A DNA stretch of 32,377 nt, from NCBI GenBank assembly GCA_031263495.1, contig JAISFQ010000009.1:1-32377 (forward strand). The letters are read 5' to 3'. Numbering within the stretch: the first letter of the stretch is position 1; each line of letters opens with the position of its first letter. Position numbers and translations under genes: made by a program. The notes under the pieces are model-generated. The model saw nothing but the letters and a program-made list of their open reading frames with translations, did no database searches and was not told the DNA's origin. Positions 538 through 29,425 of the stretch are shown here, piece by piece. The DNA is from Candidatus Nutricula glyptotermitis. Lineage in GTDB: Bacteria > Actinomycetota > Actinomycetes > Actinomycetales > Bifidobacteriaceae.

Positions 538-594
538 ATGACAGAAACGAAACAGACCCCAAGTTTTAAGGGGGGGGGGGGGGCACACCGATAG
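538..594 (+). CDS. Poly-G leader ORF of the MFS gene (phase switch)
   Basis: The ATG at 538 has a good Shine-Dalgarno sequence, AAGGAG at 527-532, five bases upstream. With 14 G as written, the ORF encodes MTETKQTPSFKGGGG plus AHR and stops at TAG 592-594. Removing one G (13) or adding two (16) joins it in frame to the MFS gene through HTDRNAEPKYMKN. With 15 G it would stop at a TGA overlapping the ATG at 614 (ATGA). The ATG at 614 has no ribosome binding site of its own, so this leader is probably the real entry for ribosomes. A leader of the same design stands at 20220. The function of the peptide itself is unknown. Confidence 0.75.
   Translation: MTETKQTPSFKGGGGAHR
570..583 (+). repeat. 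Poly-G tract, 14 G (contingency locus)
   Basis: Fourteen consecutive G begin 32 nt after the A of the leader ATG and are followed by CACACC. Long G runs in a coding start region are classic slipped-strand phase-variation sites. The G count in an assembly may be a population consensus or an error. Confidence 0.85.
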
Positions 595-613
595 AAATGC
601 CGAGCCCAAATAC

Positions 614-1873
614 ATGAAAAACGCGTTAGATTTTACGACTAACAAATGGCGTGCGAACTTTTATGTGTTCAGAACTGGTCAATTTGTGACCAAGATTACG
701 TCGGCTGTCGTCGATTTTGCCCTAGTTTGGCAAGTCGTTCGAGAGACGAGTAGCGCGACTATGCTTTCTATGACCCAACTTGTATACATGTTGCCGATGA
801 TTCTGCTTATGCCATTCGTAGGTCCGCTTGTCGACAGAATGAACAAGAAGTTCCTGCTCATCGCACCTGATTTGGTGCTTGCCGTGCTTGCGGTGGTGCT
901 GATGGTTGTAGGCTATTTTTCCAATATACCGCTTGAACTTATATTCATTATGCTGTTTCTGCGAGGACTTGCGAGCGCATTTCAATCGCCTACTGTCTCG
1001 TCGATAAACCCAACGATTGTGCCTAGTGATTATATTACGAAAGCAGCAGGTCAGACGGCTATGATTAATTACGTAAGTTTTCTGATTGCGCCTGCATTTG
1101 CCGCTGCTGTGTTCGATATTTTACCACTGTACGTTATCATTTCGTTTGACATTTTGGGCGCGATAATCGGCACTCTCTGCACAGTGATTGCGAATATACC
1201 ATCATTCAAAACCAAAACTGCGCCACATTTTATAAAGGACGCGAAAGAGGGATTGCACCTGCTCAGAATGCACAAAGGCATTTATTATCTGCTTATCTAC
1301 GTCGCAGTATGGCATATTTTTGAAATGACAATCGGCCCACTGTTTCCACTGCTCATTACTGACTATTTCAACGGATCGTTTCAGCAAGTCGGAATCGCAG
1401 AAATCATATGGTCAGTCGGCACAATTACTGGTTCGTTCATTATTGGAGCGCGCGGAGCAGGCAAAAACCGCATGATTATGATGCTCGTTTGCACAATACT
1501 TTTCGGGCTACTCTCCATTCCAATTGCATTTTTACCACAAGATTTCACTGGTTTCGCTGTTTACATAGTGCTAATGGGAGTTTCAGGACTCGTCGTAACT
1601 GGGCTTGACGTGCCATTTAGTGCGATTATGCAGAGCAAATATCCGCCCGAAAAACTTGGTGCGGTTAATGGTGTTGCAAGTTCAATTACTATGATTTCAG
1701 GTCCGATTGGCTTGGCGCTCGTAGGTCCAGTAGTTGACGTAATCGGCATCGAAACTGTATTCACAGCAGTCGGCGTAACGACTTTGATTTTCGCACTCGC
1801 CGTCCGCTTCACACCTTCTGTTTGGCGGCTTGATAAAGATGTGCCGGATTATGTTAATAATGAGCATCAATAA
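614..1873 (+). CDS. MFS efflux transporter, Mef-like (DHA3 family)
   Basis: This 419-residue membrane protein closely resembles the Mef macrolide-efflux group of the major facilitator superfamily, which are proton-driven drug exporters. The family features are visible: the start WRANFYVFRTGQFVTKITSA, the loop between helices 2 and 3 (GPLVDRMNKKFLLIAPD, about residues 70-87), and FLRGLASAFQSPTVSSI (about 114-130). The length is usual for the family and the protein looks complete. The ATG at 614 fits the family start but lacks a ribosome binding site. The likely native start is the leader ATG at 538, which is out of frame with 14 G and in frame with 13 or 16. The gene therefore seems phase-variable, and the N-terminal module would sit in the cytoplasm. 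The substrate cannot be read from sequence. Confidence 0.88.
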   Translation: MKNALDFTTNKWRANFYVFRTGQFVTKITSAVVDFALVWQVVRETSSATMLSMTQLVYMLPMILLMPFVGPLVDRMNKKFLLIAPDLVLAVLAVVLMVVGYFSNIPLELIFIMLFLRGLASAFQSPTVSSINPTIVPSDYITKAAGQTAMINYVSFLIAPAFAAAVFDILPLYVIISFDILGAIIGTLCTVIANIPSFKTKTAPHFIKDAKEGLHLLRMHKGIYYLLIYVAVWHIFEMTIGPLFPLLITDYFNGSFQQVGIAEIIWSVGTITGSFIIGARGAGKNRMIMMLVCTILFGLLSIPIAFLPQDFTGFAVYIVLMGVSGLVVTGLDVPFSAIMQSKYPPEKLGAVNGVASSITMISGPIGLALVGPVVDVIGIETVFTAVGVTTLIFALAVRFTPSVWRLDKDVPDYVNNEHQ

Positions 1874-3470: not shown

Positions 3471-3525
3471 ATCAACCCTCCTAATTACTTACTACAATGC
3501 CTTTTACAAAAAAGCACTTTTAAAA

Positions 3526-13329: not shown

Positions 13330-13842
13330 ATTAATCTGTAACATTTAACAGTATTCGGCTCACTGCGCCTGTTATCTGGGTAGCGCGTGAAACGCGCGGC
13401 ACGAAATCTGAGTACATGACGGAATTCGCGCTTTGCGCTATCGCGCAGTTAATAATTAATCGCAACGCGCCAGTTAATAATGAGTAATGAGACTAGTTAA
13501 TAACGAATAGTTAATAGTTAATAATGAGTAATGAGTAAGGAATAATGAGTAATGAGTAATGAGTAATGAGTAATGGATGTGAGTTAATAGTTAATAACGA
13601 ACAGTTAATAACTGTTGGTAGGAGTTCGCGCGTTGCGCTCACGGGTTGTTTTAAGATTCCAGAGGGTCGAACGCTCATCCGCGTTCTCCTTCACAGAATT
13701 CAGAGGTGGAGTGTGCGGAATTCAGAATAGGAGTATTGCGCGGCACTAAGAGTGCTCCTTGCTGATGCAGATCCCGCATCGCATTCACTTGCGGGATGAC
13801 AAGTGGGGGGTATAAGTTGTGTTAACGATTTGTTACAAATTC
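13330..13842. repeat. Repeat mosaic upstream of the MATE gene
   Basis: No gene is seen. It includes a tatctgggtagcgcg module (13370 on), a GCGCTTTGCGC hairpin module, TTAATAG heptamers (13455-13530, 13585-13615), TAATGAG heptamers (13520-13575, about four perfect in a row), and a partial palindromic-element module (GATCCCGCA/TGCGGGATGAC, 13769-13801). Confidence 0.7.
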
Positions 13843-13878: not shown

Positions 13879-15252
13879 GTGTCTTTTATAAAATCGGCTC
13901 TGAAAAAGAGCAAGTATGACAAATCGATTCTCGCAATCTGGCTTCCGAGCGCTGCGAGTCTTTTGGTCTACCCGCTTTTCTACATCGTCGACACGGCGAT
14001 TGTGGGTCATCTTGGCACGCAGCAATTAGCGGGACTCGCGCTCGGTGCTTCCCTGATTTCGGCGATTACGGAAGTTTTTATGTTCCTAGGTTTTGCGACA
14101 ATATCGGCAGTTTCGATAAGTTTGGGGTTGGGCGACAAAAAACGCGCAATGCGGTTGGGACTTGATTCGATTTGGCTCGCAGTCGGAATCGGCATAGTCA
14201 TTTGGACATTATTGTACTTCTTTACTGACGAAATTATCAACGCATTTCTGTCCACAACGCATGAACAAAGTGCGCTCGAAGCAGGCGAATATGCATACAC
14301 ATACTTGAAAACCATATCGTGGAAAGTGCCTTTTGTGCTGATATCGTTCGCGTGTAATGGAGTTTTGCGCGGAATGCAACGCGTCAGGTTCTCGACCTTC
14401 GTGTCGATCGTGATGAGCGGGGTAAACATCGTGCTCAACTTCTATTTCGTCTACGGTTTGGACCTAGGCATAAAGGGCAGCGCGCTTGGCACATTAGTAG
14501 CGCAAGTTTTGGGTGGAATCGCACTGTTAATCGCAGTTATGCGTCACATTTTGCATGAGAAAGTCGGCATTATGCCAAGTTGGTCAGGGTTTGCAACCAC
14601 GCTTTCGACAGGTATTCCGCTGTTCATACGCTCACTTTGTCTATGGGCGACGATTGTGTTCCTAAACGCAGTAAGCATATATTTTGGAAGCGTGGCGTTG
14701 GCAGCGATGCAAGTAGTCGAATCGATATGGCTGTTTGGGTTGCTCACACTCGATGCACTCGCAATAGCCGCACAAACTTTAATCGCCGAAGCGATAGGCA
14801 AAAAGGACGAGAAACGCATTCAGGCACTGGTCAACCGCATTTTGCAAATCGCACTAATGACAGGCATACCTTTAATCTTTTTCCAGTTCATAATGGGCTA
14901 CTTTTCAATGCCAATGTTCACTGCCGATCCTGAAGTGCAATTTTATGGCATGCTCGCGTGCTTCGAAACTGGACTCATAGTCATGATTTGCGCTGTCACA
15001 TTTCCGCTCGACGGCGTACTTATGGCAGGCGAGGACATGAAATATCTCGCGAAAGTAGCATTCTTCGGCGCAGTACCGACTGTCATTCTCGTCCTAATCG
15101 CGCGCATCGCCTTGCCACCCGAACCTTGGGGCATCATCATCATATGGTTCATTTTCGACGGCGTTTACATCGGCATCCGCGCAATTCTCAACTATCGCCG
15201 TGTCAAGAGTAACGTGTGGTATAAGCATGCGATTGAGAGCGTTAGTAATTAG
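13879..15252 (+). CDS. MATE-family multidrug efflux transporter (DinF-like)
   Basis: A membrane exporter of about 457 residues with about 12 transmembrane helices in two homologous halves. WLPSAASLLVYPLFYIVDTA, VGHLGTQQLAGLALG and GFATISAVSISLGLGDKKRA are typical of the DinF-like branch of MATE transporters, which exchange cations for drugs or other toxic compounds. The frame is open back to a GTG at 13819, but that region contains the -35 and -10 boxes of the promoter (13843-13871), so I take the GTG at 13879 (VSFIKSALKKSKYDKS) and a leaderless mRNA. The last 20 bp of the gene region are copied downstream of the restriction-modification genes (17906-17925). The substrate is unknown. Confidence 0.9.
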   Translation: MSFIKSALKKSKYDKSILAIWLPSAASLLVYPLFYIVDTAIVGHLGTQQLAGLALGASLISAITEVFMFLGFATISAVSISLGLGDKKRAMRLGLDSIWLAVGIGIVIWTLLYFFTDEIINAFLSTTHEQSALEAGEYAYTYLKTISWKVPFVLISFACNGVLRGMQRVRFSTFVSIVMSGVNIVLNFYFVYGLDLGIKGSALGTLVAQVLGGIALLIAVMRHILHEKVGIMPSWSGFATTLSTGIPLFIRSLCLWATIVFLNAVSIYFGSVALAAMQVVESIWLFGLLTLDALAIAAQTLIAEAIGKKDEKRIQALVNRILQIALMTGIPLIFFQFIMGYFSMPMFTADPEVQFYGMLACFETGLIVMICAVTFPLDGVLMAGEDMKYLAKVAFFGAVPTVILVLIARIALPPEPWGIIIIWFIFDGVYIGIRAILNYRRVKSNVWYKHAIESVSN

Positions 15253-15460
15253 TAAGGAATAATGAGTAATGAGTAATGAGTAATGAGTAATGAGTAATGA
15301 GTAATGAGTAATGAGTAAGGAGTAATGAATAATGCTGTTAGTTAATAGTTAACAGTTAATAGTTAATAATTTGGAATCGGAATTCGCCTACGGCTCATAC
15401 TCCATCTCAGAATTCCGCACGTAGATGCGGAATCTTAATTAAAGTATTGCGTAGCAATGC
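15234..15460 (+). repeat. Left direct repeat flanking the R-M module
   Basis: It begins with tgagagcgttagtaattagt (15234-15253), the 3' end of the MATE gene, then heptamers, then an 89-bp stretch (15324-15412) identical to 17955-18043, then 48 bp (15413-15460) identical to 18065-18112. The right copy is at 17906-18112 and includes a 21-bp insertion. Confidence 0.85.
15260..15315 (+). repeat. (TAATGAG)8 heptamer tract
   Basis: Eight perfect tandem copies of TAATGAG follow the MATE stop, then imperfect units. Because the unit is 7 nt and contains stop codons, any three copies give stops in all three forward frames. The right flanking repeat has only about two or three units, so the number of copies varies. 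Confidence 0.9.
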
Positions 15461-15476
15461 GATTAGCAAACTGTGG

Positions 15477-15482
15477 TAGAAT
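15477..15482 (+). promoter_or_regulatory. -10 box for leaderless dam gene
   Basis: TAGAAT lies 7 nt before the ATG at 15490, with gtgg just upstream as at the surface-protein promoter (19984). No good -35 box is visible. A start at the ATG itself would give a leaderless mRNA. Confidence 0.5.
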
Positions 15483-15489
15483 ATTAAGT

Positions 15490-16251
15490 ATGAGTTCTAT
15501 TGTTGTAGAAAAAGTTCATGCAGAAAGTGTGACTAATGCATTAAGTGCGCCTAAACCGTTCGTTAAATGGGTCGGTGGGAAGCGTCAATTGTTGCCAACC
15601 ATAAAAGACAATTTACCTGTTGGGATTGGCGAAACCATTACAAAATATGCCGAACCGTTTGTGGGTGGCGGTGCTTTGCTGTTTAACTTGCTTCCAAACT
15701 ATAACTTCAGTGACGCGTATATATCCGACATGAACGTTGGACTAATTACAGCGTACAACACTATTCGAGATGATGTATACGAACTGACCGACTTGCTAGA
15801 AGCCATACAAAATGAGTTTTACACTTACAAAACTGAAGAAACCAAAGCCAATTATTATTACAACATGCGTTCGCGCTACAATGAATTGTTAAACAGTGCA
15901 TCGTTTTATGAAATAGACAACAAAACCGAACTCGCAGCACTATTCATAACACTCAACAAAACATGCTTTAATGGAATGTACAGAGTGAATGCAAAAGGCG
16001 AATTTAACGTTCCGCTTGGCAGGTATCATGAGCCATTGATTTGTGATGCTGACAATTTGTTTGCAACAAGTGAGTACTTACAAAGTGTTACTATACATTG
16101 CGGAAACTATCAGGATGCAGATAGTTTTATTGACGACCAAACATTTGTATACTTTGATCCACCATATCGCCCAATAACACAAACATCGGCATTTACAGCG
16201 TATACTGATGGCGGGTTTAAGGAAGGAGTAGAATATGTCAAAGCAGCGTGA
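15490..16251 (+). CDS. Dam-like adenine DNA methylase (D12 class), C-terminally truncated
   Basis: A 253-residue N6-adenine methyltransferase of the Dam/DpnM type. PFVKWVGGKRQLL (23-35) and EPFVGGGALLFNLL (55-68) form the AdoMet site, NKTCFNGMYRVNAKGEFNVP (156-175) is a strong family signature, and VYFDPPYRPI (220-229) is the catalytic motif. Dam enzymes usually continue about 80-90 residues past DPPY. Here only 27 follow, ending GGFKEGVEYVKAA, so some 60 residues with the later conserved motifs are missing. The final codons double as the ribosome binding site and start of the next gene, with a 17-nt overlap. It may be inactive or a recent deletion fusion. I prefer the ATG at 15490 over an earlier in-frame one because of the -10 box 7 nt upstream. 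Confidence 0.85.
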   Translation: MSSIVVEKVHAESVTNALSAPKPFVKWVGGKRQLLPTIKDNLPVGIGETITKYAEPFVGGGALLFNLLPNYNFSDAYISDMNVGLITAYNTIRDDVYELTDLLEAIQNEFYTYKTEETKANYYYNMRSRYNELLNSASFYEIDNKTELAALFITLNKTCFNGMYRVNAKGEFNVPLGRYHEPLICDADNLFATSEYLQSVTIHCGNYQDADSFIDDQTFVYFDPPYRPITQTSAFTAYTDGGFKEGVEYVKAA

Positions 16252-16969
16252 TGATGTAATTGAAGCACTAGAAAAACTTGGCGGATATGCGACATTTGGA
16301 AAGTTGAATCAAACAATTGACTTTACAAAATGGATAACTAAAACGCCAGAAGCGAGTGTTAGGCGAATAGTACAAGATAGCACTGAGATTTTCCGTATAC
16401 GAAAAGGTTTGTGGGGTCTTGAATCAAAAAAGCGCGAAATTATGGCAAAACTTGGACTAGATAACTTAGATGAAAGCAGTTCAGAAAAGAAAAGTGTGGA
16501 CTTTACACATTCGTATTTTCAAGGGCTACTAACTGAAATCGGAAAAATGCAAGGGCTCAAGACATATGTTCCTGCACAAGATAAAAATAAGTTATTTCTT
16601 GAAACAAAACTCGGCGAGATTGCAGACACTACAACCATTTTACCATTTACGTACGAAAAAATAACTAACAAAGCAAGGACTGTTGATGCAATTTGGTTTA
16701 ACAAAGACCGAGACTTACCTAATGCATTTTTTGAGGTTGAACATTCTACTGACATTAAGAACGCATTGTCAAAGTTCTATGAATTGCAAGATTTTAGAGC
16801 AAAGATGATAATTGTTGCAGATGTTCATCGGAAACCACAGTTTGATAAAATAATGACAGATTCACTTTGGCGTAGCATTCGCAATATAGTAACATTCCAG
16901 TCATACGATAAAGTAGTGGATTTACATAAAAAGACAATAGATTTATACAGTTTGGGAGAAATATTATGA
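16235..16969 (+). CDS. Predicted type II restriction endonuclease (HTH plus PD-(D/E)XK-like)
   Basis: A 244-residue protein in a methylase operon. The N-terminal 65 residues (DVIEALEKLGGYATFGKLNQ ... RRIVQDSTEIFRIRKGLWGL) look like the winged-helix domain found on many restriction enzymes. The C-terminal part has D151 in TVDAIWF and E167/E169 in NAFFEVEHSTDI, a pattern seen in PD-(D/E)XK-like nucleases (here E-x-E rather than E-x-K). The start has AAGGAAGGAG upstream, inside the truncated dam gene. It would cleave DNA not protected by the partner methylase. The target sequence cannot be read; GATC is a guess from the Dam-like partner. Confidence 0.7.
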   Translation: MSKQRDDVIEALEKLGGYATFGKLNQTIDFTKWITKTPEASVRRIVQDSTEIFRIRKGLWGLESKKREIMAKLGLDNLDESSSEKKSVDFTHSYFQGLLTEIGKMQGLKTYVPAQDKNKLFLETKLGEIADTTTILPFTYEKITNKARTVDAIWFNKDRDLPNAFFEVEHSTDIKNALSKFYELQDFRAKMIIVADVHRKPQFDKIMTDSLWRSIRNIVTFQSYDKVVDLHKKTIDLYSLGEIL

Positions 16970-17190
16970 GCAAAAGAGTAGTAGAAGTTGAAATTGCAGA
17001 AACGCTTTATAAAACAATAAAAGTTGAAATACCTGATGAATACGCTGGTAATGTTTTTCATTATGCAGAGCGAAAAGTCACTCGTGACTACAAGGACGAA
17101 GAAATAATATTATATTCAGATGACTTTATTGGTCCAACTCAACTCAGGTCAGTATATGGTGACGAAATTATCGACTGGCACGATATGTAA
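16966..17190 (+). CDS. Small protein of the R-M operon, unknown function
   Basis: A 74-residue, acidic protein (MSKRVVEVEIAETLYKTIKV ...), starting on an ATGA overlap with the nuclease stop, so it is coupled to it. I do not recognise a family. It shares a reading frame with the next methylase; its TAA (17188-17190) is only 24 nt before the methylase GTG, and no other stop intervenes. It could be a control or inhibitor protein for the nuclease, but nothing in its sequence proves that. Confidence 0.6.
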   Translation: MSKRVVEVEIAETLYKTIKVEIPDEYAGNVFHYAERKVTRDYKDEEIILYSDDFIGPTQLRSVYGDEIIDWHDM

Positions 17191-17214
17191 AGTTTTATTC
17201 TCAAGACAACCACC

Positions 17215-17901
17215 GTGTGGAGTTTCCCAGAGCGTGGCAAGTGGGCAACTCATGATGCTGCGTGGCGTGGAAACTGGTCGCCATATATTCCACGCAACAT
17301 AATTTTACGCTACTCAAATGAAAGCGATACAGTTTTAGACCAATTCGCTGGTGGCGGAACGACGCTTGTCGAAGCAAAACTGTTGAACCGCAATGCTATT
17401 GGTATTGACGTGAACGATGATGCACTTGCGCGCTGCAACGATAAATTAAACTTTGATTACGATTCGGACTCAGTAATTGAAGTTAGAAAAGGCGATGCGC
17501 GTGACTTAAAAGATATTGGCGATGAATCAATTGACCTTATCGCAACACACCCACCATACGCCAACATTATAAAATATAGCGACGACATACCAGAAGACTT
17601 ATCACACTTTAAGTTAAACGAGTTCGTAGTTGAAATGGGAAAAGTCGCCGAAGAATCGTTTCAGGTGTTGAAAAAGGGCAAGTTCTGCGTAATTCTGATT
17701 GGTGATACACGCAGTAAAGGCATGGTTCAACCGCTTGGAATGCAGGTTATGCAAAAGTTCGCAGAAGCAGGATTCGCGCTCAAAGAAATCATCATCAAAG
17801 AACAACACAACTGCCGTGCAACTGGCTTTTGGAAAACCAACAGCATTAAGCACAACTTCCTACTTCTAGCGCATGAATACTTGTTCGTGTTTAGGAAATA
17901 G
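17215..17901 (+). CDS. Site-specific DNA methyltransferase (N4/N6 type)
   Basis: About 228 residues of a DNA amino-methyltransferase. WSFPERGKWATHDAAWRGNW (2-21) and SPYIPRNIILRYS (22-34) match the usual N-terminus of this family. The AdoMet motif is LDQFAGGGTT (41-50), the catalytic motif is THPPYANIIKYSDD (111-124), and ILIGDTR, QHNCRATGFW and NFLLLAHEYLFVF complete the conserved C-terminal part. GTG 17215 has no ribosome binding site. Upstream the same frame reads back through LKTTT to the TAA of the small ORF, so the start may be a non-ATG codon used after termination there, or the frame may once have been joined. It is probably the protecting partner of the nuclease, more intact than the Dam-like gene. 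Confidence 0.82.
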   Translation: MWSFPERGKWATHDAAWRGNWSPYIPRNIILRYSNESDTVLDQFAGGGTTLVEAKLLNRNAIGIDVNDDALARCNDKLNFDYDSDSVIEVRKGDARDLKDIGDESIDLIATHPPYANIIKYSDDIPEDLSHFKLNEFVVEMGKVAEESFQVLKKGKFCVILIGDTRSKGMVQPLGMQVMQKFAEAGFALKEIIIKEQHNCRATGFWKTNSIKHNFLLLAHEYLFVFRK

Positions 17902-18309: not shown

Positions 18310-19800
18310 GCACAACCCCAGTGGGCGCATAGCGCACGCTGATGCAGTGCTATAAAAGTATTCGCAACGCGAATTCCGATTCTTGCGAGCGAAGCAAGCA
18401 ATAAAAGCGTGAGCCGCTAGGCGAACTCCTTATCAAACGCGCTGCGTGCAACGCAGCGCAATAAAAGCGTGAAGGCATAGCCTGAACTCCGATTCAACCG
18501 CGTTGCGTGAAAGCGCAGCGCAATCAAAGTATTCGCAACGTGAATTCCTTCTACTATCCCAAAATCCAGATAGCGTCCCAATTTGTGTGTATTTTATGAA
18601 TCACTTTATAATTCTCGCAACAACCTCTCTCAGAGTTCCTGCGAAGGCAGGAATCTTAAAACGAAGTATCGGCGTTAGCCGATTCCATATCAAACGCACT
18701 CAGTGCAACGCAGTGTAATAAAAGTATTCGCAACGCGAATTCCGATTCTTGCGAGCGAAGCGAGCAATAAAAGCATTCGCAAAGCGAATTCCGATTCCCG
18801 CGAGCGAAGCGAGCGCAATAAAAGCGTGAGCCCATAGGGCGAACTCCTTATCAAACGCACTGCGTGAAACGCAGTGCTATCAAAGTATTCGCTATGCGAA
18901 TTCCGATTCCTGCGAGCGAAGCGAGCAATAAAAGCATGAGCGAAAGCGAATTCCGATTCAAACACACTGTGTGAAACGCAGTGCTATCAAAGTATTCGCA
19001 ACGCGAATTCCGATTCTTGCGAGCGAAGCGAGCAATAAAAGCGTGAGCCCATAGGGCGAACTCCTTATCAAACGCACTGCGTGAAACGCAGTGCTATCAA
19101 AGTATTCGCAACGCGAATGCCGATTCCCGCGAGCGAAGCGAGCAATAAAAGTATGAGCGAAAGCGAATTCCGATTCCTGCGAGCGAAGCGAGCAATAAAA
19201 GCGTGAGCCGCTAGGCGAACTCCTTATCAAACGCGCTGCGTGCAACGCAGTGCTATCAAAGCATGAGCGAATTCCTTTAATTGCATTGCTACGCCCTTTG
19301 TCATCCTCAACGGAGCAAAGCGAAGTGCCCGAGGATCTTAATCAAAAGCATCGGCGTTAGCCGATTCCATTTCCCGCGAGCGAAGCGAGCAATCAAAGTG
19401 TGAAGGCGTCAGGCGAACTCCTTATCAAACGCGTTGCGCGAAAGCGCAACGCAATAAAAGCATGAGCGAAAGCGAATTCCGATTCAAACGCACTGCGTGA
19501 AACGCAGTGCTATCAAAGTATTCGCGAAAGCGAATGCCGATTCCCGCGAGCGAAGCGAGCAATCAAAGTATTCGCAACGCGAATTCCGATTCCCGCGAGC
19601 GAAGCGAGCAATCAAAGTATTCGCAACGCGAATTCCGATTCCCGCGAGCGAAGCGAGCGCAATAAAAGTATGAGCGAAAGCGAATTCCTTATAATTGCAT
19701 TGCTACGCCCTTTGTCATCCTCAACGGAGCAAAGCGAAGTGCCCGAGGATCTTAATTAAAAGTATCGGCGTTAGCCGATTCCATTTCCCGCGAGCGAAGC
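18310..19800. repeat. Array of short variable-stem palindromes
   Basis: About 1.5 kb is made almost wholly of alternating modules. One has a hairpin such as GCACTGCGT/ACGCAGTGC. A second is gattcccgcgagcgaagcgagcaataaaag. A third is a short hairpin between aaaagYRT and gaaYtcc, with stems such as TTCGC/GCGAA, GCCC/GGGC or AGGC/GCCT. Longer modules (gtcatcctcaacggagcaaag ... gaggatctta) occur at about 19309-19340 and 19714-19753. No gene is present; the long minus-strand frames at 18690-19245 are repeats translated. Confidence 0.8.
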
Positions 19801-19920
19801 GAGCGCAAAAAACAAGACCAACCCAACAGAAAGAAACCAACCCCAGCCATAGCAAGCGCGGTAGCGCACCCACCCACCCCCAACCACCCCAAAAACGAAA
19901 TAAACAACAAATAGAGTTCG
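19801..19920. repeat. C/A-rich module, inverted relative to 30310-30523
   Basis: AACAAGACCAACCCAACAGA and catagcaagcgcggtagcgc (19850-19869) recur on the opposite strand at about 30460-30500 and 30320-30345 respectively. The right-hand version is split and rearranged. These partial inverted repeats bracket the giant surface gene. Confidence 0.6.
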
Positions 19921-20036: not shown

Positions 20037-20203
20037 ATAATGAGTAACGCGAAACGAGAGGGCGCAAAGCCCTAGGGAATGCGATTGAGCATTCGACCCG
20101 TCCGTTAAATTCATTACTCATTATTAACTACTCATTAACTTAAAAGGTGGTGGAGAATTAAATTTGTCAAGAAGACAGTGCAGTTAATACTAACTGCTGG
20201 ATT
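20037..20203 (+). promoter_or_regulatory. Structured 5' UTR upstream of the poly-G leader
   Basis: ATAATGAGTAA (20037-20047) can pair with TTACTCATTAT (20114-20124), enclosing a small hairpin AGGGC/GCCCT (20059-20073). A second hairpin, GCAGTTA/TAACTGC, lies at about 20182-20199. The MFS leader also has a TAATGAG/CTCATTA pairing in its 5' UTR. Confidence 0.45.
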
Positions 20204-20219
20204 GACACAAGGAGGACAT

Positions 20220-20309
20220 ATGTCAACACAAAAAATAACCTCTCCAATTAAGGGGGGGGGGGGGGCACACCTTATGCCCCAAAGTATAACAAGGCGCACT
20301 TTAACGTGA
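20220..20309 (+). CDS. Poly-G leader ORF of the surface protein (phase switch)
   Basis: The ATG at 20220 follows AAGGAGG at a normal distance. With 14 G, the ORF reads MSTQKITSPIKGGGG, then AHLMPQSITRRTLT, and stops at TGA 20307-20309, overlapping the GTG (20306) of the main gene as GTGA. With 12 or 15 G the leader fuses in frame through TPYAPKYNKAHFNVKRLL to the signal peptide. With 13 G it stops early (TAA). The design copies the leader at 538: the same 32-nt ATG-to-tract distance, the same CACACC after the tract, a similar peptide, and a PKYxK motif in the fused frame. Confidence 0.78.
   Translation: MSTQKITSPIKGGGGAHLMPQSITRRTLT
20252..20265 (+). repeat. Poly-G tract, 14 G (contingency locus)
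   Basis: Fourteen G after ATTAA, followed by CACACC. The tract starts 32 nt after the A of the leader ATG, exactly as at 570-583. It sets whether the leader is fused, coupled or cut off from the surface-protein gene. Confidence 0.85.
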
Positions 20310-23300
20310 AACGCCTACTTTCGCAAGTTCTAGCAGTAACTTTATTGGGTGCTACGCTTGTTTCTGTTCCAACGAATGTAAATGCAGCACCGCCAACCAA
20401 TTTTGCTGATGTGGCTCAATGCTATAACACAAGTAGCAATCAATTTGAAGATTCGTCAAATAGTGGTAAGTGCGGAGGGCAGGGCTCAAATCAAGAAGCA
20501 TTCGTGCTTGAAGTTGTTACGACTGCATCGAACCAAACTGCCTACATTCCCGTTAGAGCAGTAAGTACTGGTCCAGATATTTATAACGTTTCATACAACT
20601 GGGATATTAATTGGGGCGATACTACGGAAGAGACTAAAACTGGTGTTAGTGACAACCCTGTCGCTTTTCACCTCTCGCACCAATACACAACCGCAGGCAC
20701 ATATAACATAGTCATCACTCCAAAGGACGATGCTGCGCTAGGCTGGCTAGACGCATTTGGCAGATATAGCAGTACAACCTACAGTGCTGGTATAACGAGA
20801 ATCCTAACGCCATTTCCTGAGCTTTCAAGAACGCCAAGAGCCAATGCGTTTTATCAGACTTTCCAGCAAATGCAAGACGCTAAAAACTTGCCAGAAAACT
20901 TATTCTGGGGAATTAACACATCACAGTTAACAGACTTTTCGAACATGTTCAGCAGCACTTTTTCAAACTATGCATACAAAGCCGCCGCATTAACAGACGT
21001 GACAATCCCAGAAAATTTGTTTAGTGAACTAGATACTACATCTGGAATCACTTTCTCAAATATGTTCAATAGCACTTTCACCTATTACGCACACTCAAAC
21101 ACTGCCGCAACAAGCATAGCAATTCCAGAAGATTTGTTCGAATCAATTAACACATCAAACGGGACGACTTTCACTTCTATGTTCAGTAACACTTTCGACC
21201 ATGCATATTACTCTAATGTTAACGCAGTCACAGCAGCAATCCCAGAAGGTTTGTTTAGCGAAATCGACACATCAAACGGGACGACTCTCAATTCCATGTT
21301 CCAAGACACTTTCACCTATTATGCATACTCAAACACTGCAGCCACAGACGTTTCAATCCCAGAAGATTTGTTCGAATCAATTAACACATCAAGTGCAACT
21401 AATCAAAGTTCTATGTTCAATAACACTTTCTTCGATTACGCATACTCAAACACTACAGACGCAGACATTTCAATTCCAGCAAAGTTATTTCAATCAATTG
21501 ACACAGAAACTGCAACTAACCTAAGTTATATGTTCAGCAATACTTTCAACAACTATGCCTACTTAGATACTGCAGCAACAGATATATCAATCCCAGAAGG
21601 CTTATTTGATACAATAAAAACACCTAAAAATGTGACCTTCAATTATATGTTCCGAGGCACTTTCAATGGTTATGCAAGCAACGCACCAGTTGGAGCAAAG
21701 CAAAGTGCAACAATCCCAGAAGAATTATTCGAGGCTCTTGATTTTACTGCGGGAACGCTTTTTTCTAATATGTTCCAAGATACTTTCCTAAACTATGCAA
21801 ATCAGCGAAAAGTAACCTTTGATACAGGACAAGGCTCATTTACCAACGACCCTGACAATCCTCAGACATTATCAGGCAACGCATTCGGAGTAAAAGCAGA
21901 TAATGCATCTCCAAGCGCTAACCCGACACTCGACAAAAATTCGAAAGATATAAAGCCAGCATATAATAATAACACAGGATTAACGGTTCAAGATCCAGGC
22001 GTTCCACAATTACAAAACAGTGCGTTTAAAGGCTGGTATTTGGATGCCGATTTTTACGATCCATTTGACCTTACTGTAAACAGATTATTTGCGTCCGACA
22101 CAAGCACAGAAGTAAGCGATGCAACTCTGTATGCCAAATTCCAAATATTAGCCGCTCAAACAGTGCCAGATAATTGGGAAAGTCCTGTCTTTTGCTATGA
22201 TTTCACGACATTTGCTCCAACTACCAAAACTGATGATGCGTGCGGAGGAATAAGCGCAACAGAAGAAGAAGGCTTTATATTAGAAGCACAAGTCGAAGAA
22301 AACGATGAAGTCAATATTCCAGTTGCAGGAAAAACGCACAACAATGCTTTTGGCGTTCCATACAATTGGAGAGTGGATTGGGATGATGGTCGCGAAACAG
22401 TCACAGGAGAGCAAATTTCCGCTGCTAGCAAAGTAATCACTCATAAATATACAGAGGAAGGAACGTACCAAATCAGGATAACTCCGATTGATATTGATGC
22501 TACTGTTTTAGGATGGTTTGACGCATTTGGCAGCCTTACTTCTGGTGCTGACACAAAAATAACAAGGATTCTGACGCCATTTTCTGCTCTTGCCAAAACT
22601 CCAAGACCTTACGCATTCTATGAAACTTTCTATAACTTCCAAAATATGCAAAACTTGCCAGCAAACCTGTTTATTTCAGTAGACACAAAAAACGTGCAGG
22701 ACTTTTCTTATATGTTCCACCGCACTTTTGCAAATTATGCACGCGTGAGTGAAGCGGATGATTTAGCAATCACAGATGATTTATTTAATACAATAGACAC
22801 ATCAAACGGAACTAATTTCTCTCTTATGTTCTGCCAAACTTTCTCTGATTTTGCAAGGGACGTATCAACTGATTTGAAACTAAGTTTAACGATTCCATTA
22901 GATTTGTTCGCTGATCTTGTTGTTTCAAATGGAACGACTTTTACGTATATGTTCGAAGGAACTTTTGGTGGCTACGCAAACATAAGAGAAGTAACTTTTG
23001 ACTTAGATGGCGGAACACTTCCAGATGACCCTGCCAATCCTCAAACTTTATTAAACAACACATGGGGTGTAAAAGCAGATAATGCAACGACAGGATTAAC
23101 TAATCCACAAATCACAAAAGATTCAACAAACATAAAGCCATCATACAATGTAGGGCTATCTGTCACAAATCCAGGAAACCCGACTAAAGCAGATAATTTG
23201 TTTAGAGGCTGGTATCTTGATAGTAACTTTGAATTTCCATTTAACATTACGACAGATAAAGTCTACACATCTGATATAAGCACATTGGAAACTGATGTGC

Positions 23301-26300
23301 ATTTATACGCAAAGTTTATAAGCGATTCTAGCGTATACGTGCCAGATACTTGGGCAGATGATGCTTATTGCTACGATTTCAACGCTGGAACGTCAGATTA
23401 TTCATACACTGACCCCTGCGGAGGAAACGGAAGTACAGATAAAGAAGGCTTTATATTAGAGGCGACAGTCGAAGCAGGAGATGATGTTCTGATTCCGGTC
23501 GCAGGAAAGGACGAAAACAATGCTTTCGGCGTTCCATACAATTGGAGCATAGATTGGGATGATGACGCTGTCACTGAAACGACTGAATTAACTTCTGCTA
23601 GAAACAAAACAATCTCGCACAAATATCAAACAGCAGGAACTTATCAAATCAAGATAACTCCAGCACAAACTCCGTCAAGTGCAGGCTGGTTTGATGCATT
23701 TGGAGGTCTTAGTTCTGTTGACACAAAGATAACTAGAATCCTGACGCCATTCTCTGTTTATGCAAGAACTCCACGACCTTATGCTTTCTATCAAACTTTC
23801 CAGAATTTCCAAAACATCCAAAACTTGCCAGAAAACTTATTTGCAGGAGTTGATACAAAGAGTTTAACTATTTTCTCAAGCATGTTCCGTGAGACTTTCT
23901 TAAACTATGCTTACAATACTCAAGCAGAAGACATATCGATTCCAGCAGATCTATTCGCTGAATTAGACACAGAGGAGGCAACTAACTTCTCTAGCATATT
24001 CCAAAGCACTTTCTCAGGTTTTGCGTATTCTAACACAAAAGCAGAGGACATATCAATCCCAGAAGGTTTATTTGACGCACTTGATGGAGAAAAAGTAACT
24101 AATTTCTCAAGCATGTTTCGTGAGACTTTTGCTAATTATGCGTATTCTGCGACAAATGAAGTGAAAGCAGAGGCAACGATTCCAGAGGAGCTGTTTGCTG
24201 AAATTAGCGTGAGTGCTGGAACAAGTTTTGGTTATATGTTCCAGAACACTTTCCAAAATTATGCGAACAAGCGTAAGGTAGAGTTCAATTTAGATGGTGG
24301 TGCACTTCCAGATACTTCTAGCAATCCACAGATATTGTCAGGCATTAATGCTTGGGGAGTTGCAGCAAGCACTGCAGAAGCAGGAGCTAATCCAAGAATC
24401 ACTAAAGATTCTGATGATATAAAGCCCTCGTATAACAATGAAACAGGGTTATCCGTCGCTAATCCTGGGAATCCCACTAAAACTTCTACTACGTTTATTG
24501 GCTGGTATGCAGATGACCAATTTGAAACTCTGTTTACGTTTACAACAGATAAAGTATATACTGCCGACGTGGATACAGATACGAACGCTGTGACTTTGTA
24601 TGCAAAATTCCTAACAATCACGGCGCAAACTGTTCCAAGCACTTGGTCTGCGGATGCTTTATGCTATGATTTTGTGGGTTTCGCACCAACTGATGCTAAT
24701 GATGCTTGCGGAGGAGAAGGTAACACGAAGGAGGAAGGCTTTATACTCCAAGTCACTACGACAGCAGAAAATGAAAGTGCTTCTATTCCGGCTGCTGGAG
24801 TTAGCGGAACCCAATGGGGTGCGCCAGTGTATAATATCCCATTCAACTGGACTATCGAATGGGGAGATAGCAGCGCTAGGACTGTAACAGGCGTTTCGTA
24901 TTCGTATCTTTACACTGTAATCTCTCACGTCTATAAAGAAGCAGGAACTTATCAAATTAAGATAACTCCGACTGGGGAAGCCGAAGCGGGTTGGTTTGAT
25001 GCATTTGGCTATGGAACTGCTACAAACAATGCTAACATAACTCGCATTCTAACTCCATTTTCCAAACTCGCAAGAACTCCAAGGGCGTACATGTTTTATT
25101 ATACTTTCAGCAATATGCAAAACATTCTAAACCTACCAGAAAACTTGTTTGAAGGAGTCGACACATCAAAAGTGATAGACTTTTCTAATATGTTCAATTA
25201 CACTTTCTTTAACTACGGTTATAATGGTGCTAACTTGCAAAATATGCAGATTCCAGAAGATTTATTTGCGGAATTGGACACAGGAGATGGAGAAAACTTC
25301 TCGTATATGTTCCAGAGAACTTTTGAGCAGTATGCGCGTATGAATACCTCAGTAAATGACACATCGATTCCAGAAGGTTTATTTGCGGAATTGGACACAG
25401 AAAGTGGAACTAATTTCTCATATATGTTTGACAGCACTTTCTTAAACTATTTCTATATGAACGGTGCATCAGCTGACATAGAGCTTCCAGAAGAATTGTT
25501 TGAATCAATCGACACATCAAGTGGAGAAAACTTTTCTCATATGTTTAACAGAACTTTTGCATATTATGCTCAGGCTGGTAACGATGACCAAGTCGAGATA
25601 GCGATTCCAGAAGGTTTGTTTGCATCAATCGACACATCAAATGGAAAAGATTTATCGTACATGTTCACAGAAACCTTCCGTCAATATGCCTATCGCGCCA
25701 CAGGAGAAGATGCAAGCAACTCACCTCTAATCCCAGACAAGTTGTTTGAAGCAATCAACACAAAAAGTGGAACTGATTTCTCTTACATGTTCTATAACAC
25801 TTTCAATTCTTATGCTTATGCTAACACAGAACTTAGCGTAAAAATTCCAGGCGAATTGTTTAGCAAAGTAGATACATCAAACGGAGAAAACTTCTCTAAC
25901 ATGTTCTATGGCACTTTCCAAAGTTTTGCTGATAATGCTGCATATTCATCCGACATCAAGATTCCAGAAGAGTTATTTAACTCGATATATACGGGGAATG
26001 GCAAAAACTTCTCGTATATGTTCGCCTACACTTTTGGAAATTACGTCGGCTCTAATGCTACTGCAACAGATGTAACAATCCCAGAAGGCTTGTTTAGTTC
26101 ATTAGACACAACAAACGGTGAGAATTTTGCTTATATGTTCCAAAGCACTTTCAATGGCTATGCTTCATTGGCAAAAGCAACAGACATATCAATTCCGGAA
26201 AACTTATTTGCTGGATTAGATACTACAAATGGAAAGAACTTTACTGGAATGTTCTTTGCAACTTTCGTATACTATGGAAATGGAGCGACAGATGCTGTAA

Positions 26301-29300
26301 AAGCAAGTGCAACGATTCCAGAAAACCTGTTCTCTGGCATTAAAGTAACGAATGGAGCGACCTTTACTGACATGTTCAATGGACCTTTCACTAACTACGC
26401 AAACAAGCGAAAAGTGACTTTTGAGTTAGGTAATGGAAATTTTTCAGGTAGCCCTGATAATCCTCAGATATTAACCAATAACGCTTGGGGAGTAAAGGCA
26501 GGCACTGGAGCACCAGCAATGAACCCTACAATCGACAAAAACTCTGTAAACATAAAGCCATCGTATTACAATAGCACGGGATTGCCTGTTGCAGATCCAG
26601 GTGAAGTGACTAATAGCAGTGGGACATTTGAAGGTTGGTATAAAGATGACGCAGCAGCAAGTCGATTTATCATTGGCACAGACAAGTTATACACAAACGA
26701 TGTGAGCACAGAGGAGAATAATTTGACTTTGTATGCTGGATATGGTTATACATTGACATATAACGCAAACTCTGGCACTGGAAATGCACCCACTGGAATT
26801 GTCTCATGCGCTCTGAAACCTGGCGATTCTTCCTGTGAAATAACTGTCCTAGATAACGCAGGGTTTGAAAAGAAAGGCTTTACATTCACTGGCTGGAACA
26901 CTCAGGCTGACGGCACGGGAGATGCTTACGTTGCAGGTGACAAAATATCCATTAGTAGCAATGGTGAAATATATGCTGTTTGGGAAGCCAACACATACAC
27001 TCTAACCTATAACGGAAATGGCAACACTGGAGGCACTCAGCCTACTGGACCTCATACATGCACAGTTACGCAAGACACATGCGATATAGATGTCGCAGGT
27101 AACACAGGGGATTTTGTCAAAACAGGTTACACATTTGACACGTGGAACACTCTTGCTAACGGTTCGGGTAATGATTATACAGCAGATGCCAAGATAACCA
27201 TGGACGGCGACGCTGAGCTCTATGCTAAATGGAACGCTGACACTTATACGATAGAATTTGACTTAACAAGTGCTGAAAATAATGATGCTGAATGCGCTCA
27301 ATTTGATGTAACATATGATGTGGCTGTGCCGTCATTTACTTGCACCGTGCCTCCCACTAAGGCAAATCATGCAGTTGATGGCTGGCAAATTGGAAGCACT
27401 GATATTACGCTGTTTGATGAAAACGGTGCTATTATAAAAGGTGTTAGCGGCTATACAGACGCTTCGGGCAAATGGATAAACGCAGATGGTGGTGTGACGC
27501 TAGAGCCAAAATGGAAAGTTACGGCTTATACAGTAACGTTTGTTTCTAATGATGGGACAAGTGTTCCTCCTAAAACAGTGCCAGTAGGCGAAACAGTGGA
27601 TAAGCCAGATGATCCTACTAAGACTGATTACACATTTGTTGCTTGGTATAGTGACATCGATTTGCAAACTGAGTGGGACTTTGAAACAGACCTTATAACA
27701 GAGGATGTTGCTCTATACGCTAAATGGGTTATTACCACTTATACTGTTTTGTTCAATTCTGCTGGCGGAACGGATGTTGAGTCTAAAACAGTGCAAACAG
27801 GCGAAAAAGTAGATAAACCAGATGACCCTACTAGGACCTATTACACATTTGATGCTTGGTATAAAGATGACGCTTTGCAAACTGAGTGGGACTTTGGAAC
27901 AGACGTTGTAACAGGAAACATTACTCTATACGCTAAGTGGATTATTGACACTTATACTGTTTCGTTTGTTTCTAATGATGGGACGAGTGTTCCTTCTAAA
28001 ACAGTGCAAGTAGGCGAAAAAGTGGCTAAACCAGATGATCCTACTAGGCTTTATTACACATTTGTTGCTTGGTATAAAGACATTGATTTGCAAACTGAGT
28101 GGAACTTTGCAACAGACGTTGTAACAGAGGATGTTATTTTATATGCGAAGTGGGTTATTGACACTTATACTGTTTCGTTTGATTCTGATGGTGGAACGAG
28201 TATTGCTCCCAAAACAGTGCAAGCAGGCGAAAAAGTAGATAAACCTGTTAATCCAACTAAGGCTGATTACACATTTGTTGCTTGGTATAAAGATTCTGCG
28301 CTACAAACTGAGTGGAACTTTGGAACGGACATAGTAACAAGCGATATTACATTATATGCCAAGTATATGTATATTTCACCCACACCCACACCCACTCCTC
28401 CTACTCCTGCTTCAAAAGATGCACCTACTCCAACTGGCGTCAAACTCGCTACGACAGGTAAGGCAAATGAACTAAAAGTCACTTGGAGTGTCCCTAGTGC
28501 TAATAATGTTGCTAGTTTCAAAGTAACGCTGGACAATGTATTAGGAACTGCGAAGAACGAATCTATTTTGTCTGCTGTTCAAGAAACAGTAAGCATAACT
28601 GTTCAGGCAAATAAACGAGAGGCTATATTCACTAATGTGCCTACGGGAACGTACAGAGTGTCTGTTCAAGCGATTGCTAAAAGTGGAGGAAAATCGTCGG
28701 CTATCATTTGGTCCAACCAACTCTTACATAAATTAGATGTTGCGAAAACATATAGTTTCGTAGATTTAAAGGGCGTTGCGAAAGATAGAGCAAATGATAT
28801 TGCTTGGTTATCTTCTGTCGGAGTAACTATTGGAACTAATTGTAATGCGGATGGCACAGGTTCTGCTTGCAAGTACAACCCAACTACTTCGGTAAATAGA
28901 GGTGCTATGGCAGAGTTTCTATACAAATTGTCTGGAAAAACTGTGACAGTGAACAAGATTCCAAAGATTTCGGATATATCTAAACTTACTACTCCTAGGA
29001 AAGATGCTATAAAATGGCTAGCATCAGAAGGAATTACTGTATTATCAAGCGGTAAGTATAATCCGCAAAACACAGTAAACAGAGGAGCAATGGCTGAGTT
29101 CATGTATAAACTTGCAGGTCATCCTGGAAGTGTCAAGTATGGAGACGCAAAAAGCGACCACGTGGATCCAAAGACAGTTGTGGCACAGGAAAAGATACTC
29201 AAAAATGACAAAAAACTCCAAGCACTGAAGAAGTCCAATCCGAACCGTTACTACGACATTCTATGGCTTGCAAAGATGAACATTACTGTGCCGATTGATG

Positions 29301-29425
29301 GAAAATACTACAATCCACAGAGCGCGGTAAACAGAGGAGCAATGGCTCAATTCATGCATAAACTGTACTATGTTATGATGACTGGACAAGCAGTACCTGC
29401 AAGTGGTGATGTACCTAATGTATAA
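20306..29425 (+). CDS. Giant repeat-built surface protein with SLH-like C-terminus
   Basis: A secreted protein of 3039 residues. The signal peptide (MKRLLSQVLAVTLLGATLVS, cleavage likely at VNA-A, about 29) is followed by four similar modules starting near residues 38, 628, 1025 and 1452. Each has a header with two cysteines (CYDF...CGG), a PKD-like domain (W-I-D-W-G-D ... HKYxxAGTYQIKITP), then a row of about 39-residue units, I-P-E-x-L-F-x-x-I-D-T-S ... F-S-x-M-F-x-x-T-F-x-x-Y-A, resembling DUF285/BspA-like repeats (8, 3, 4 and 11 units), and an InlB B-repeat-like end. Further B-repeats follow, including four of 71 residues (27524-28375), then a Pro/Thr linker (about 2690-2712), an FnIII-like domain, and three actinobacterial SLH-like repeats (VNRGAMAEF). 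It has no LPXTG motif. It is likely an adhesin held to the wall by the SLH-like part. The GTG start has only a weak upstream site; expression depends on the leader at 20220. Confidence 0.88.
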   Translation: MKRLLSQVLAVTLLGATLVSVPTNVNAAPPTNFADVAQCYNTSSNQFEDSSNSGKCGGQGSNQEAFVLEVVTTASNQTAYIPVRAVSTGPDIYNVSYNWDINWGDTTEETKTGVSDNPVAFHLSHQYTTAGTYNIVITPKDDAALGWLDAFGRYSSTTYSAGITRILTPFPELSRTPRANAFYQTFQQMQDAKNLPENLFWGINTSQLTDFSNMFSSTFSNYAYKAAALTDVTIPENLFSELDTTSGITFSNMFNSTFTYYAHSNTAATSIAIPEDLFESINTSNGTTFTSMFSNTFDHAYYSNVNAVTAAIPEGLFSEIDTSNGTTLNSMFQDTFTYYAYSNTAATDVSIPEDLFESINTSSATNQSSMFNNTFFDYAYSNTTDADISIPAKLFQSIDTETATNLSYMFSNTFNNYAYLDTAATDISIPEGLFDTIKTPKNVTFNYMFRGTFNGYASNAPVGAKQSATIPEELFEALDFTAGTLFSNMFQDTFLNYANQRKVTFDTGQGSFTNDPDNPQTLSGNAFGVKADNASPSANPTLDKNSKDIKPAYNNNTGLTVQDPGVPQLQNSAFKGWYLDADFYDPFDLTVNRLFASDTSTEVSDATLYAKFQILAAQTVPDNWESPVFCYDFTTFAPTTKTDDACGGISATEEEGFILEAQVEENDEVNIPVAGKTHNNAFGVPYNWRVDWDDGRETVTGEQISAASKVITHKYTEEGTYQIRITPIDIDATVLGWFDAFGSLTSGADTKITRILTPFSALAKTPRPYAFYETFYNFQNMQNLPANLFISVDTKNVQDFSYMFHRTFANYARVSEADDLAITDDLFNTIDTSNGTNFSLMFCQTFSDFARDVSTDLKLSLTIPLDLFADLVVSNGTTFTYMFEGTFGGYANIREVTFDLDGGTLPDDPANPQTLLNNTWGVKADNATTGLTNPQITKDSTNIKPSYNVGLSVTNPGNPTKADNLFRGWYLDSNFEFPFNITTDKVYTSDISTLETDVHLYAKFISDSSVYVPDTWADDAYCYDFNAGTSDYSYTDPCGGNGSTDKEGFILEATVEAGDDVLIPVAGKDENNAFGVPYNWSIDWDDDAVTETTELTSARNKTISHKYQTAGTYQIKITPAQTPSSAGWFDAFGGLSSVDTKITRILTPFSVYARTPRPYAFYQTFQNFQNIQNLPENLFAGVDTKSLTIFSSMFRETFLNYAYNTQAEDISIPADLFAELDTEEATNFSSIFQSTFSGFAYSNTKAEDISIPEGLFDALDGEKVTNFSSMFRETFANYAYSATNEVKAEATIPEELFAEISVSAGTSFGYMFQNTFQNYANKRKVEFNLDGGALPDTSSNPQILSGINAWGVAASTAEAGANPRITKDSDDIKPSYNNETGLSVANPGNPTKTSTTFIGWYADDQFETLFTFTTDKVYTADVDTDTNAVTLYAKFLTITAQTVPSTWSADALCYDFVGFAPTDANDACGGEGNTKEEGFILQVTTTAENESASIPAAGVSGTQWGAPVYNIPFNWTIEWGDSSARTVTGVSYSYLYTVISHVYKEAGTYQIKITPTGEAEAGWFDAFGYGTATNNANITRILTPFSKLARTPRAYMFYYTFSNMQNILNLPENLFEGVDTSKVIDFSNMFNYTFFNYGYNGANLQNMQIPEDLFAELDTGDGENFSYMFQRTFEQYARMNTSVNDTSIPEGLFAELDTESGTNFSYMFDSTFLNYFYMNGASADIELPEELFESIDTSSGENFSHMFNRTFAYYAQAGNDDQVEIAIPEGLFASIDTSNGKDLSYMFTETFRQYAYRATGEDASNSPLIPDKLFEAINTKSGTDFSYMFYNTFNSYAYANTELSVKIPGELFSKVDTSNGENFSNMFYGTFQSFADNAAYSSDIKIPEELFNSIYTGNGKNFSYMFAYTFGNYVGSNATATDVTIPEGLFSSLDTTNGENFAYMFQSTFNGYASLAKATDISIPENLFAGLDTTNGKNFTGMFFATFVYYGNGATDAVKASATIPENLFSGIKVTNGATFTDMFNGPFTNYANKRKVTFELGNGNFSGSPDNPQILTNNAWGVKAGTGAPAMNPTIDKNSVNIKPSYYNSTGLPVADPGEVTNSSGTFEGWYKDDAAASRFIIGTDKLYTNDVSTEENNLTLYAGYGYTLTYNANSGTGNAPTGIVSCALKPGDSSCEITVLDNAGFEKKGFTFTGWNTQADGTGDAYVAGDKISISSNGEIYAVWEANTYTLTYNGNGNTGGTQPTGPHTCTVTQDTCDIDVAGNTGDFVKTGYTFDTWNTLANGSGNDYTADAKITMDGDAELYAKWNADTYTIEFDLTSAENNDAECAQFDVTYDVAVPSFTCTVPPTKANHAVDGWQIGSTDITLFDENGAIIKGVSGYTDASGKWINADGGVTLEPKWKVTAYTVTFVSNDGTSVPPKTVPVGETVDKPDDPTKTDYTFVAWYSDIDLQTEWDFETDLITEDVALYAKWVITTYTVLFNSAGGTDVESKTVQTGEKVDKPDDPTRTYYTFDAWYKDDALQTEWDFGTDVVTGNITLYAKWIIDTYTVSFVSNDGTSVPSKTVQVGEKVAKPDDPTRLYYTFVAWYKDIDLQTEWNFATDVVTEDVILYAKWVIDTYTVSFDSDGGTSIAPKTVQAGEKVDKPVNPTKADYTFVAWYKDSALQTEWNFGTDIVTSDITLYAKYMYISPTPTPTPPTPASKDAPTPTGVKLATTGKANELKVTWSVPSANNVASFKVTLDNVLGTAKNESILSAVQETVSITVQANKREAIFTNVPTGTYRVSVQAIAKSGGKSSAIIWSNQLLHKLDVAKTYSFVDLKGVAKDRANDIAWLSSVGVTIGTNCNADGTGSACKYNPTTSVNRGAMAEFLYKLSGKTVTVNKIPKISDISKLTTPRKDAIKWLASEGITVLSSGKYNPQNTVNRGAMAEFMYKLAGHPGSVKYGDAKSDHVDPKTVVAQEKILKNDKKLQALKKSNPNRYYDILWLAKMNITVPIDGKYYNPQSAVNRGAMAQFMHKLYYVMMTGQAVPASGDVPNV
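27524..28375 (+). repeat. Four tandem 213-bp coding repeats (B-repeats)
   Basis: Four copies with a period of 213 nt (71 codons), starting at about 27524, 27737, 27950 and 28163. Each encodes TYTVxFxSxxGT ... KTVQxGEKVDKPDDPT ... AWYKD ... LQTEW ... LYAKW. They are similar enough in DNA to recombine, so copy number may vary between strains. Confidence 0.85.

What the first reader, a model, noticed from the sequence alone, without database searches (positions are those of the whole stretch)
20220..20309. Poly-G switch in front of the giant surface protein, currently in the coupled frame
Seen: a leader ATG with AAGGAGG, 14 G, and a TGA overlapping the GTG of the 3039-codon gene (GTGA). 12 or 15 G fuses the leader to the signal peptide; 13 G stops early at a TAA. 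Inference: depending on G number, the surface protein has an N-terminal extension of about 28 residues before the signal peptide, starts by reinitiation, or is not made. An extended signal-peptide region could change export.
Basis: partly seen in the sequence, partly recalled or inferred. Interest (0 to 1): 0.9.

Follow-up and report, generated by a model that had tools for sequence, protein, structure and literature searches.

The report
Genome-wide poly-G gene on/off switches
A run of 14 G's sits inside the first codons of a giant surface-protein gene and, as it gains or loses G's, should switch that protein on or off; the same genome carries about 19 such switches that share an unusual short flanking DNA signature, so the bacterium probably shuffles its whole surface this way.

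Summary
The tract is one of 36 runs of ≥9 G in this 1.55-Mb draft genome (Bifidobacteriaceae, inferred). Nineteen of these form a class: most lie just after a leader start codon, two lie mid-gene. They control giant SLH/List_Bact_rpt proteins, lipoproteins, MFS and ABC transporters, GtrII, VanY and a methylase-specificity gene.

Best reading: slipped-strand phase variation. The fused frame is the full-length ON form, because unswitched paralogues encode the same kind of N-terminal stretch in one frame and main starts of most fused-type genes lack an SD. The assembled 14-G state is probably OFF or weak by reinitiation. Stop/start overlaps occur at 8 of 13 loci (P 0.02), so a third 'coupled' state is possible but unproven.

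The TTAA–G9–CAC form was not found in the other 395 order genomes sampled. Closest precedent: the B. breve pilus G-tracts. New variant of a known kind; no reads, so length variation is untested.

The parts
20146..20153 (+). GGTGGTGG element 74 nt before the leader ATG; seen 35-74 nt before the leader ATG of 7 switched genes
20209..20215 (+). Shine-Dalgarno AAGGAGG of the leader (duplex energy -11.2 kcal/mol)
20220..20309 (+). leader frame at 14 G: ATG ... TGA (29 codons); probably the true N-terminus of the surface protein when in frame
20238..20251 (+). 5' flank of the tract, ACCTCTCCAATTAA: C-rich block plus AATTAA, shared by the switch class
20252..20265 (+). poly-G tract, 14 G in the assembly: the slippage site
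20266..20271 (+). 3' flank CACACC, consensus of the coding-strand-G loci (+1 C in 11/11)
20274..20276 (+). ATG 8 nt after the tract, in the coupled frame; the G tract could serve as its SD, which would make the overlap with GTG independent of G number
   Evidence: sequence; frame
20287..20289 (+). TAA that ends the leader at 13 or 16 G (OFF)
20306..29425 (+). 3039-codon surface protein from GTG: signal peptide, PKD-like and BspA/DUF285-like repeats (the latter by eye), List_Bact_rpt repeats (PF09479), SLH at the C-terminus
538..613 (+). second switch of the same class in the window: leader ATG 538, G14 570-583, flanks ACCCCAAGTTTTAA and CACACC; fused at 13/16 G, ATGA overlap at 15 G, early stop at 14 G
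614..1873 (+). MFS transporter controlled by the 570-583 tract

Best explanation
The G tract is a contingency (phase-variation) switch that works by slipped-strand gain or loss of G's during replication. Ribosomes load at the strong leader SD. At 12 or 15 G the leader runs in frame into the signal peptide and the full-length surface protein is made (ON). At 13 or 16 G translation stops at TAA 20287 and little or no protein is made (OFF). At 14 G it stops at a TGA overlapping GTG 20306, giving OFF or a low level by termination-reinitiation. The site is one of about 19 such switches in the genome, all in one flanking context (C-rich block, AATTAA, Gn, CA[C]) regardless of which strand or frame is coding, so the context probably acts in the DNA, for example by tuning slippage. 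Shown from sequence: the frames, the SDs, the set, the shared flanks. Inferred: slippage, expression states, role of the flanks.
For: Frames at this locus. 36 tracts of >=9 G in the genome; 19 have the flank class, in front of or inside surface proteins, lipoproteins, transporters, GtrII, VanY and a methylase-specificity gene, the usual content of phase-variable gene sets. A fused class exists at 11 of 13 leader loci; the other two (C89, C103) have a stop at or near the main start. Leader SDs are strong (mean -8.0 against -4.5 for other genes); for 8 fused-type loci the main start is weak (mean -1.1). Assembled states are mixed: C104, C120 and C62 are fused, the others not. Tract-free paralogues C96, C151, C105 and C55 encode the N-terminal stretch in frame with strong SDs. 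Flank motif: C-rich run in 17/19 against 7.8% of background sites (P 2e-17) and 2/17 other tracts; far flanks are not alike except in three paralogues. Precedent with measured length variation in the same family: B. breve pilus loci (PMC9187656).
Against: No reads, no strain comparison, no expression data; one genome only, and no related surface protein was found in the 18 family and order genomes searched besides this one. The tract length in the assembly may be wrong by one or more. C51, C62, C103 and C150 have decent SDs at the main start, so fusion is not strictly needed there. MutS and NucS were not found, but the genome is only 77% complete.
Confidence: 0.78

Rival explanations
1. Three-level switch: 15 G gives an extended protein, 14 G gives a protein from GTG by translational coupling, 13 G gives none; the assembled state is ON by reinitiation.
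For: GTGA overlap here; ATGA or TAATG overlap in the equivalent class at 570, C146, C104, C51, C62, C120 and C103; 8/13 against 0.306 expected, P 0.02. At C103 and C89 no fused class exists, so coupling may be the only ON mode there. Different expression levels from different frames are known for H. influenzae lic2A (cited in PMC4235727).
Against: Enrichment is mild; the main starts of most loci have no SD; C108 and C105 have no usable overlap; C108 has no start before its signal peptide.
Confidence: 0.3
2. The G tract itself acts as a Shine-Dalgarno for ATG 20274 (8 nt away), so a mini-ORF MPQSITRRTLT ending on the GTG is always translated and the gene is always expressed by coupling, whatever the G number.
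For: Spacing is ideal. By eye, the sites after the tracts at 570, C146, C120 and C104 also have a start codon 7-14 nt after the tract in the frame that ends on the main start (sequences). Duplex energy -10.7 was computed for such a start at C89.
Against: The C-strand loci cannot work this way; the C-rich block upstream could pair with the G run; not tested against chance.
Confidence: 0.1
3. Assembly or sequencing artefact of homopolymers, or a decayed gene.
For: Poly-G is hard to sequence; PMC9187656 found annotated lengths differing from measured ones.
Against: 36 tracts at distinct loci, 19 with shared flanks, and an intact 3039-codon frame; shuffles give none.
Confidence: 0.04
4. The length is decoded at RNA level (transcriptional or ribosomal slippage on G14) so that every cell makes some full-length protein.
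For: Long G or C runs are slippery for polymerases and ribosomes in general (background knowledge).
Against: It may add leakiness to the main mechanism.
Confidence: 0.1

Closest known systems
Bifidobacterium breve UCC2003 sortase-pilus G-tract switches bbr_0113 and bbr_1889 (Penno et al. 2022, PMC9187656)
   Same: Short upstream ORF with SD, G tract, second ORF lacking an SD; fusion needed for the surface protein; replication slippage measured; same bacterial family (inferred).
   Different: There the secretion signal lies in the upstream ORF and the genes are pili; here the signal peptide lies after the tract, the proteins are SLH/List_Bact_rpt proteins and many other genes, and the tracts share a strand-independent flank motif. 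Termite-associated Bifidobacteriaceae are reported to lack sortase-dependent pili (PMC11707648).
Haemophilus influenzae lic2A multi-start tetranucleotide switch (Dixon et al. 2007, cited in PMC4235727)
   Same: Repeat number in the 5' end selects among frames with possibly different expression levels.
   Different: Tetranucleotide repeats and alternative start codons upstream; no stop-start coupling.
Poly-G/C phasomes of Campylobacter and Neisseria (e.g. PMC6321876, PMC5953494)
   Same: Many homopolymer switches per genome on surface and modification genes.
   Different: No shared flank motif around the tracts is known to me for these; that is recall, and one narrow literature search did not turn one up.
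Poly-G promoter-spacer tracts in same-family genome G026
   Same: About 15 G tracts of 12-19 in one conserved flank context.
   Different: There the flanks are TTGACA and TATAAT, i.e. transcriptional switching; here the tracts are inside leaders or genes.

Membership tests
Slipped-strand (SSR) translational phase-variable locus | Homopolymer long enough to slip, located in the 5' coding region | tested here: met
   G14, 32 nt after the start of the leader ATG
Slipped-strand (SSR) translational phase-variable locus | One unit more or less changes the frame between full-length and truncated product | tested here: met
   12/15 G fused, 13/16 G stop, 14 G stop at the start codon
Slipped-strand (SSR) translational phase-variable locus | Tract length varies within a population or between strains | not testable with these tools
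   no reads and no second strain held
Slipped-strand (SSR) translational phase-variable locus | Expression follows tract length | not testable with these tools
   needs protein or reporter data
Bifidobacterial pilus G-tract switch (bbr_0113/1889 type) | Upstream ORF with SD, downstream ORF without | tested here: met
   SD -11.2 at leader, -3.0 at GTG 20306
Bifidobacterial pilus G-tract switch (bbr_0113/1889 type) | Secretion signal in the upstream ORF; product a sortase-linked pilin | tested here: not met
   signal peptide after the tract; SLH and List_Bact_rpt domains, no pilin or sortase-anchor family among the Pfam hits
Translational coupling (termination-reinitiation) | Stop and start overlap at more loci than chance | tested here: inconclusive
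   8/13 against 0.306 expected, P 0.02

The most novel reading that the evidence does not exclude
The flanks (C-rich block, AATTAA, Gn, CAC) are a dedicated cis-element, read in double- or single-stranded DNA in either orientation, that creates, maintains or tunes hypermutable G tracts genome-wide, i.e. localized mutation directed by a sequence signal and not only by repeat length.
Probability: 0.22. Interest if true: 0.85.

Novelty: new variant of a known kind. Interest (0 to 1): 0.6.

Why it matters
It indicates a phasome of surface, export and cell-wall genes in an uncultured member of a beneficial-bacteria family, possibly a symbiont of termite-gut protists, where I found no report of phase variation. 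The strand- and frame-independent flank signature makes a general question testable: whether repeat-based mutation rates are set by repeat length alone or also by evolved flanking DNA.

Tried and rejected
TTAA-G9 hits in other family genomes were read one by one: no C-rich block or CAC, so chance. A coding reason for the flanks was rejected because the same bases occur on both strands and in four codon registers. A promoter reason was rejected because the orientation relative to the gene is not fixed. A mobile-cassette origin has no support: outside the core the loci are not alike except three paralogues. The simplest structural idea, a C-block/G-tract hairpin, is possible (mean fold energy -3.8 for the class, -1.9 for other tracts, -2.4 for background) but weak and not claimed. 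Some folds use the tract only partly, and at 20252 the predicted fold does not use the C block. Stop-start overlap as the general ON mode was demoted after the null test.

Full report
OBSERVATION. The leader ATG is at 20220, behind AAGGAGG (20209-20215). Fourteen G's run from 20252 to 20265. The leader's TGA (20307-20309) overlaps GTG 20306, which opens a 3039-codon frame. Reading all three length classes: 14 G gives a 29-codon leader ending on the GTG; 15 (12) G gives one frame of 3068 codons; 16 (13) G gives 23 codons ending at TAA 20287. Dinucleotide shuffles of the window give 0.01 eight-G words where 23 are found. The window holds two other tracts, 570-583 and 5958-5973.

THE GENE. The protein has a signal peptide, PKD matches, many List_Bact_rpt repeats (PF09479, E 9e-117) and an SLH domain near the C-terminus. 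It is a wall-associated giant surface protein. BspA/DUF285-like repeats are visible by eye, but no Pfam hit was returned for them.

A GENOME-WIDE SET. The window's assembly (1.55 Mb, 157 contigs, 77% complete) has 36 tracts of at least 9 G. I read all of them with their neighbours. Nineteen form one class. Nine have the leader ATG on the G strand (C11, C38, C89, C100:570, C100:20252, C103, C104, C120, C146). Two lie inside genes on the G strand (C40, C121). Eight have the gene on the C strand (C42:108, C42:3180, C51, C62, C105, C108, C109, C150); C42:3180 lies at the end of a frame and C42:108/C109 lack a clear leader SD. Genes by Pfam: MFS (570, C146); ABC ATPases (C38, C150); GtrII glucosyltransferase (C89); VanY carboxypeptidase (C120); List_Bact_rpt/SLH giants (20252, C108, C104, C51, C62); and an N6_Mtase plus Methylase_S protein with the tract between two specificity regions (C40). 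Lipoprotein-like (by eye): C105, C103. In the assembly C104, C120 and C62 are in the fused frame; the others are not.

WHICH FRAME IS ON. For the 13 leader loci I scored Shine-Dalgarno pairing: leaders average -8.0 kcal/mol, background genes -4.5, and the main starts of eight fused-type loci -1.1. C51, C62, C103 and C150 do have good main-start SDs, so they could also start independently. C108 has no start codon before its signal peptide except through the leader. Unswitched paralogues settle what the leader is. C96, C151, C105 (second gene) and C55 start with a strong SD and run 17-37 residues before the hydrophobic core in one frame; C96 begins MKNLYRN, matching the switched leaders MKNLLGN and MKNLLGT. 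The leader is therefore most likely the normal N-terminus and fusion the full-length form. C55 has an interrupted C5TC4-TTAA stretch upstream of its start, possibly a relic.

COUPLING. The overlapping stop/start occurs in the equivalent class at 8 of 13 loci (20252, 570, C146, C104, C51, C62, C120, C103). Ordinary genes of these loci, treated the same way, give 0.306, P 0.02. That null includes truly coupled operon genes, so it is conservative. I regard a weak reinitiation state as possible, not shown.

THE FLANKS. The class was defined by AA before the tract (TTAA, ATAA or ACAA); the C-rich block was not used to select it. Both strand groups have the same consensus on the G strand: a C-rich block at about -13 to -8, A/T, AA at -2/-1 (19/19), then C at +1 (16/19, P 4e-7) and A at +2 (15/19). 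A pyrimidine run with at least 3 C ends 5-9 nt before the tract in 17/19, against 7.8% of 7577 background TTAA/ATAA/ACAA sites (P 2e-17; 14/16 and 3e-14 with paralogues removed) and 2/17 of the other tracts. Core identity at -12..-5 is 0.43 against a null mean 0.26 (maximum 0.33 in 2000 draws). Codon register differs between loci (ATT-AAG and TTA-AGG on the G strand; CCC-TTA and C-CTT-AA on the C strand), so coding constraint does not explain it. Outside the core the loci are unrelated except for C42:108/C105/C109. The pattern TTAA-G9-N0..9-CAC occurs in 1 of 396 genomes of the order, this one; TTAA-G9 occurs 14 times here and at most once in any of 188 other family genomes. Function of the flanks is unknown; tuning of slippage is my inference.

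RELATIVES. Poly-G tracts are common in the family (109 of 189 genomes have at least one run of 12) but built otherwise: in G026 they are promoter spacers, TTGACA-AGC-G12/13-TGC-TATAAT. The family is inferred to be Bifidobacteriaceae from the genome-count pattern and sizes; size and GC resemble the termite-associated genera of PMC11707648. That paper reports no mutS/mutL in the family; here MutS_V and NucS were not found either, which would favour unstable tracts. The paper does not mention phase variation.

COMPARISON. The principle equals the B. breve pilus switches. The differences are the position of the signal peptide, the gene content, the size of the set and the shared flanks. Class: new variant of a known kind.

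Noticed in passing
window 20146-20153; also L086, L094, L096, L103, L104, L112: GGTGGTG(G) element 35-74 nt before the leader ATG of seven switched genes (five giant surface proteins, a lipoprotein, an ABC ATPase), not seen before six other switched leaders or, by inspection, the unswitched paralogues: possible shared regulatory site.
   Followed up: partly
G026 loci L175-L193: A same-family genome has about 15 poly-G tracts of 12-19 G inside promoter spacers TTGACA-AGC-Gn-TGC-TATAAT, i.e. a genome-wide set of transcriptional phase-variable promoters.
   Followed up: partly
L092 4030-7798 (C40): N6_Mtase plus Methylase_S protein with G12 between two specificity regions; tract length would add or remove the second region (phase-variable methylation candidate).
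   Followed up: partly
window 5958-5973 and intergenic tracts at C2, C66, C81, C97: Other long G tracts lie in intergenic repeat elements (...TTCGCTTGCTAGATGACA-Gn) and lack the switch flanks.
   Followed up: no
window 18340-19860, 3500-3650, 13480-13620, 15218-15420: Dense families of short intergenic repeats (GCGAGCGAAGCGAGC.., TAATGAGTAATGAG..) in many copies and both orientations.
   Followed up: no
L275 (C55) about 100 nt upstream of the 5265-aa gene: GTG-CTCCCCCTCCCC-TTAA: looks like an interrupted, perhaps locked, C-strand version of the switch.
   Followed up: partly
window 15457-17901: D12-class adenine methyltransferase followed by a 244-aa unknown protein and an N6/N4 methyltransferase, just upstream of the giant gene.
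   Followed up: no
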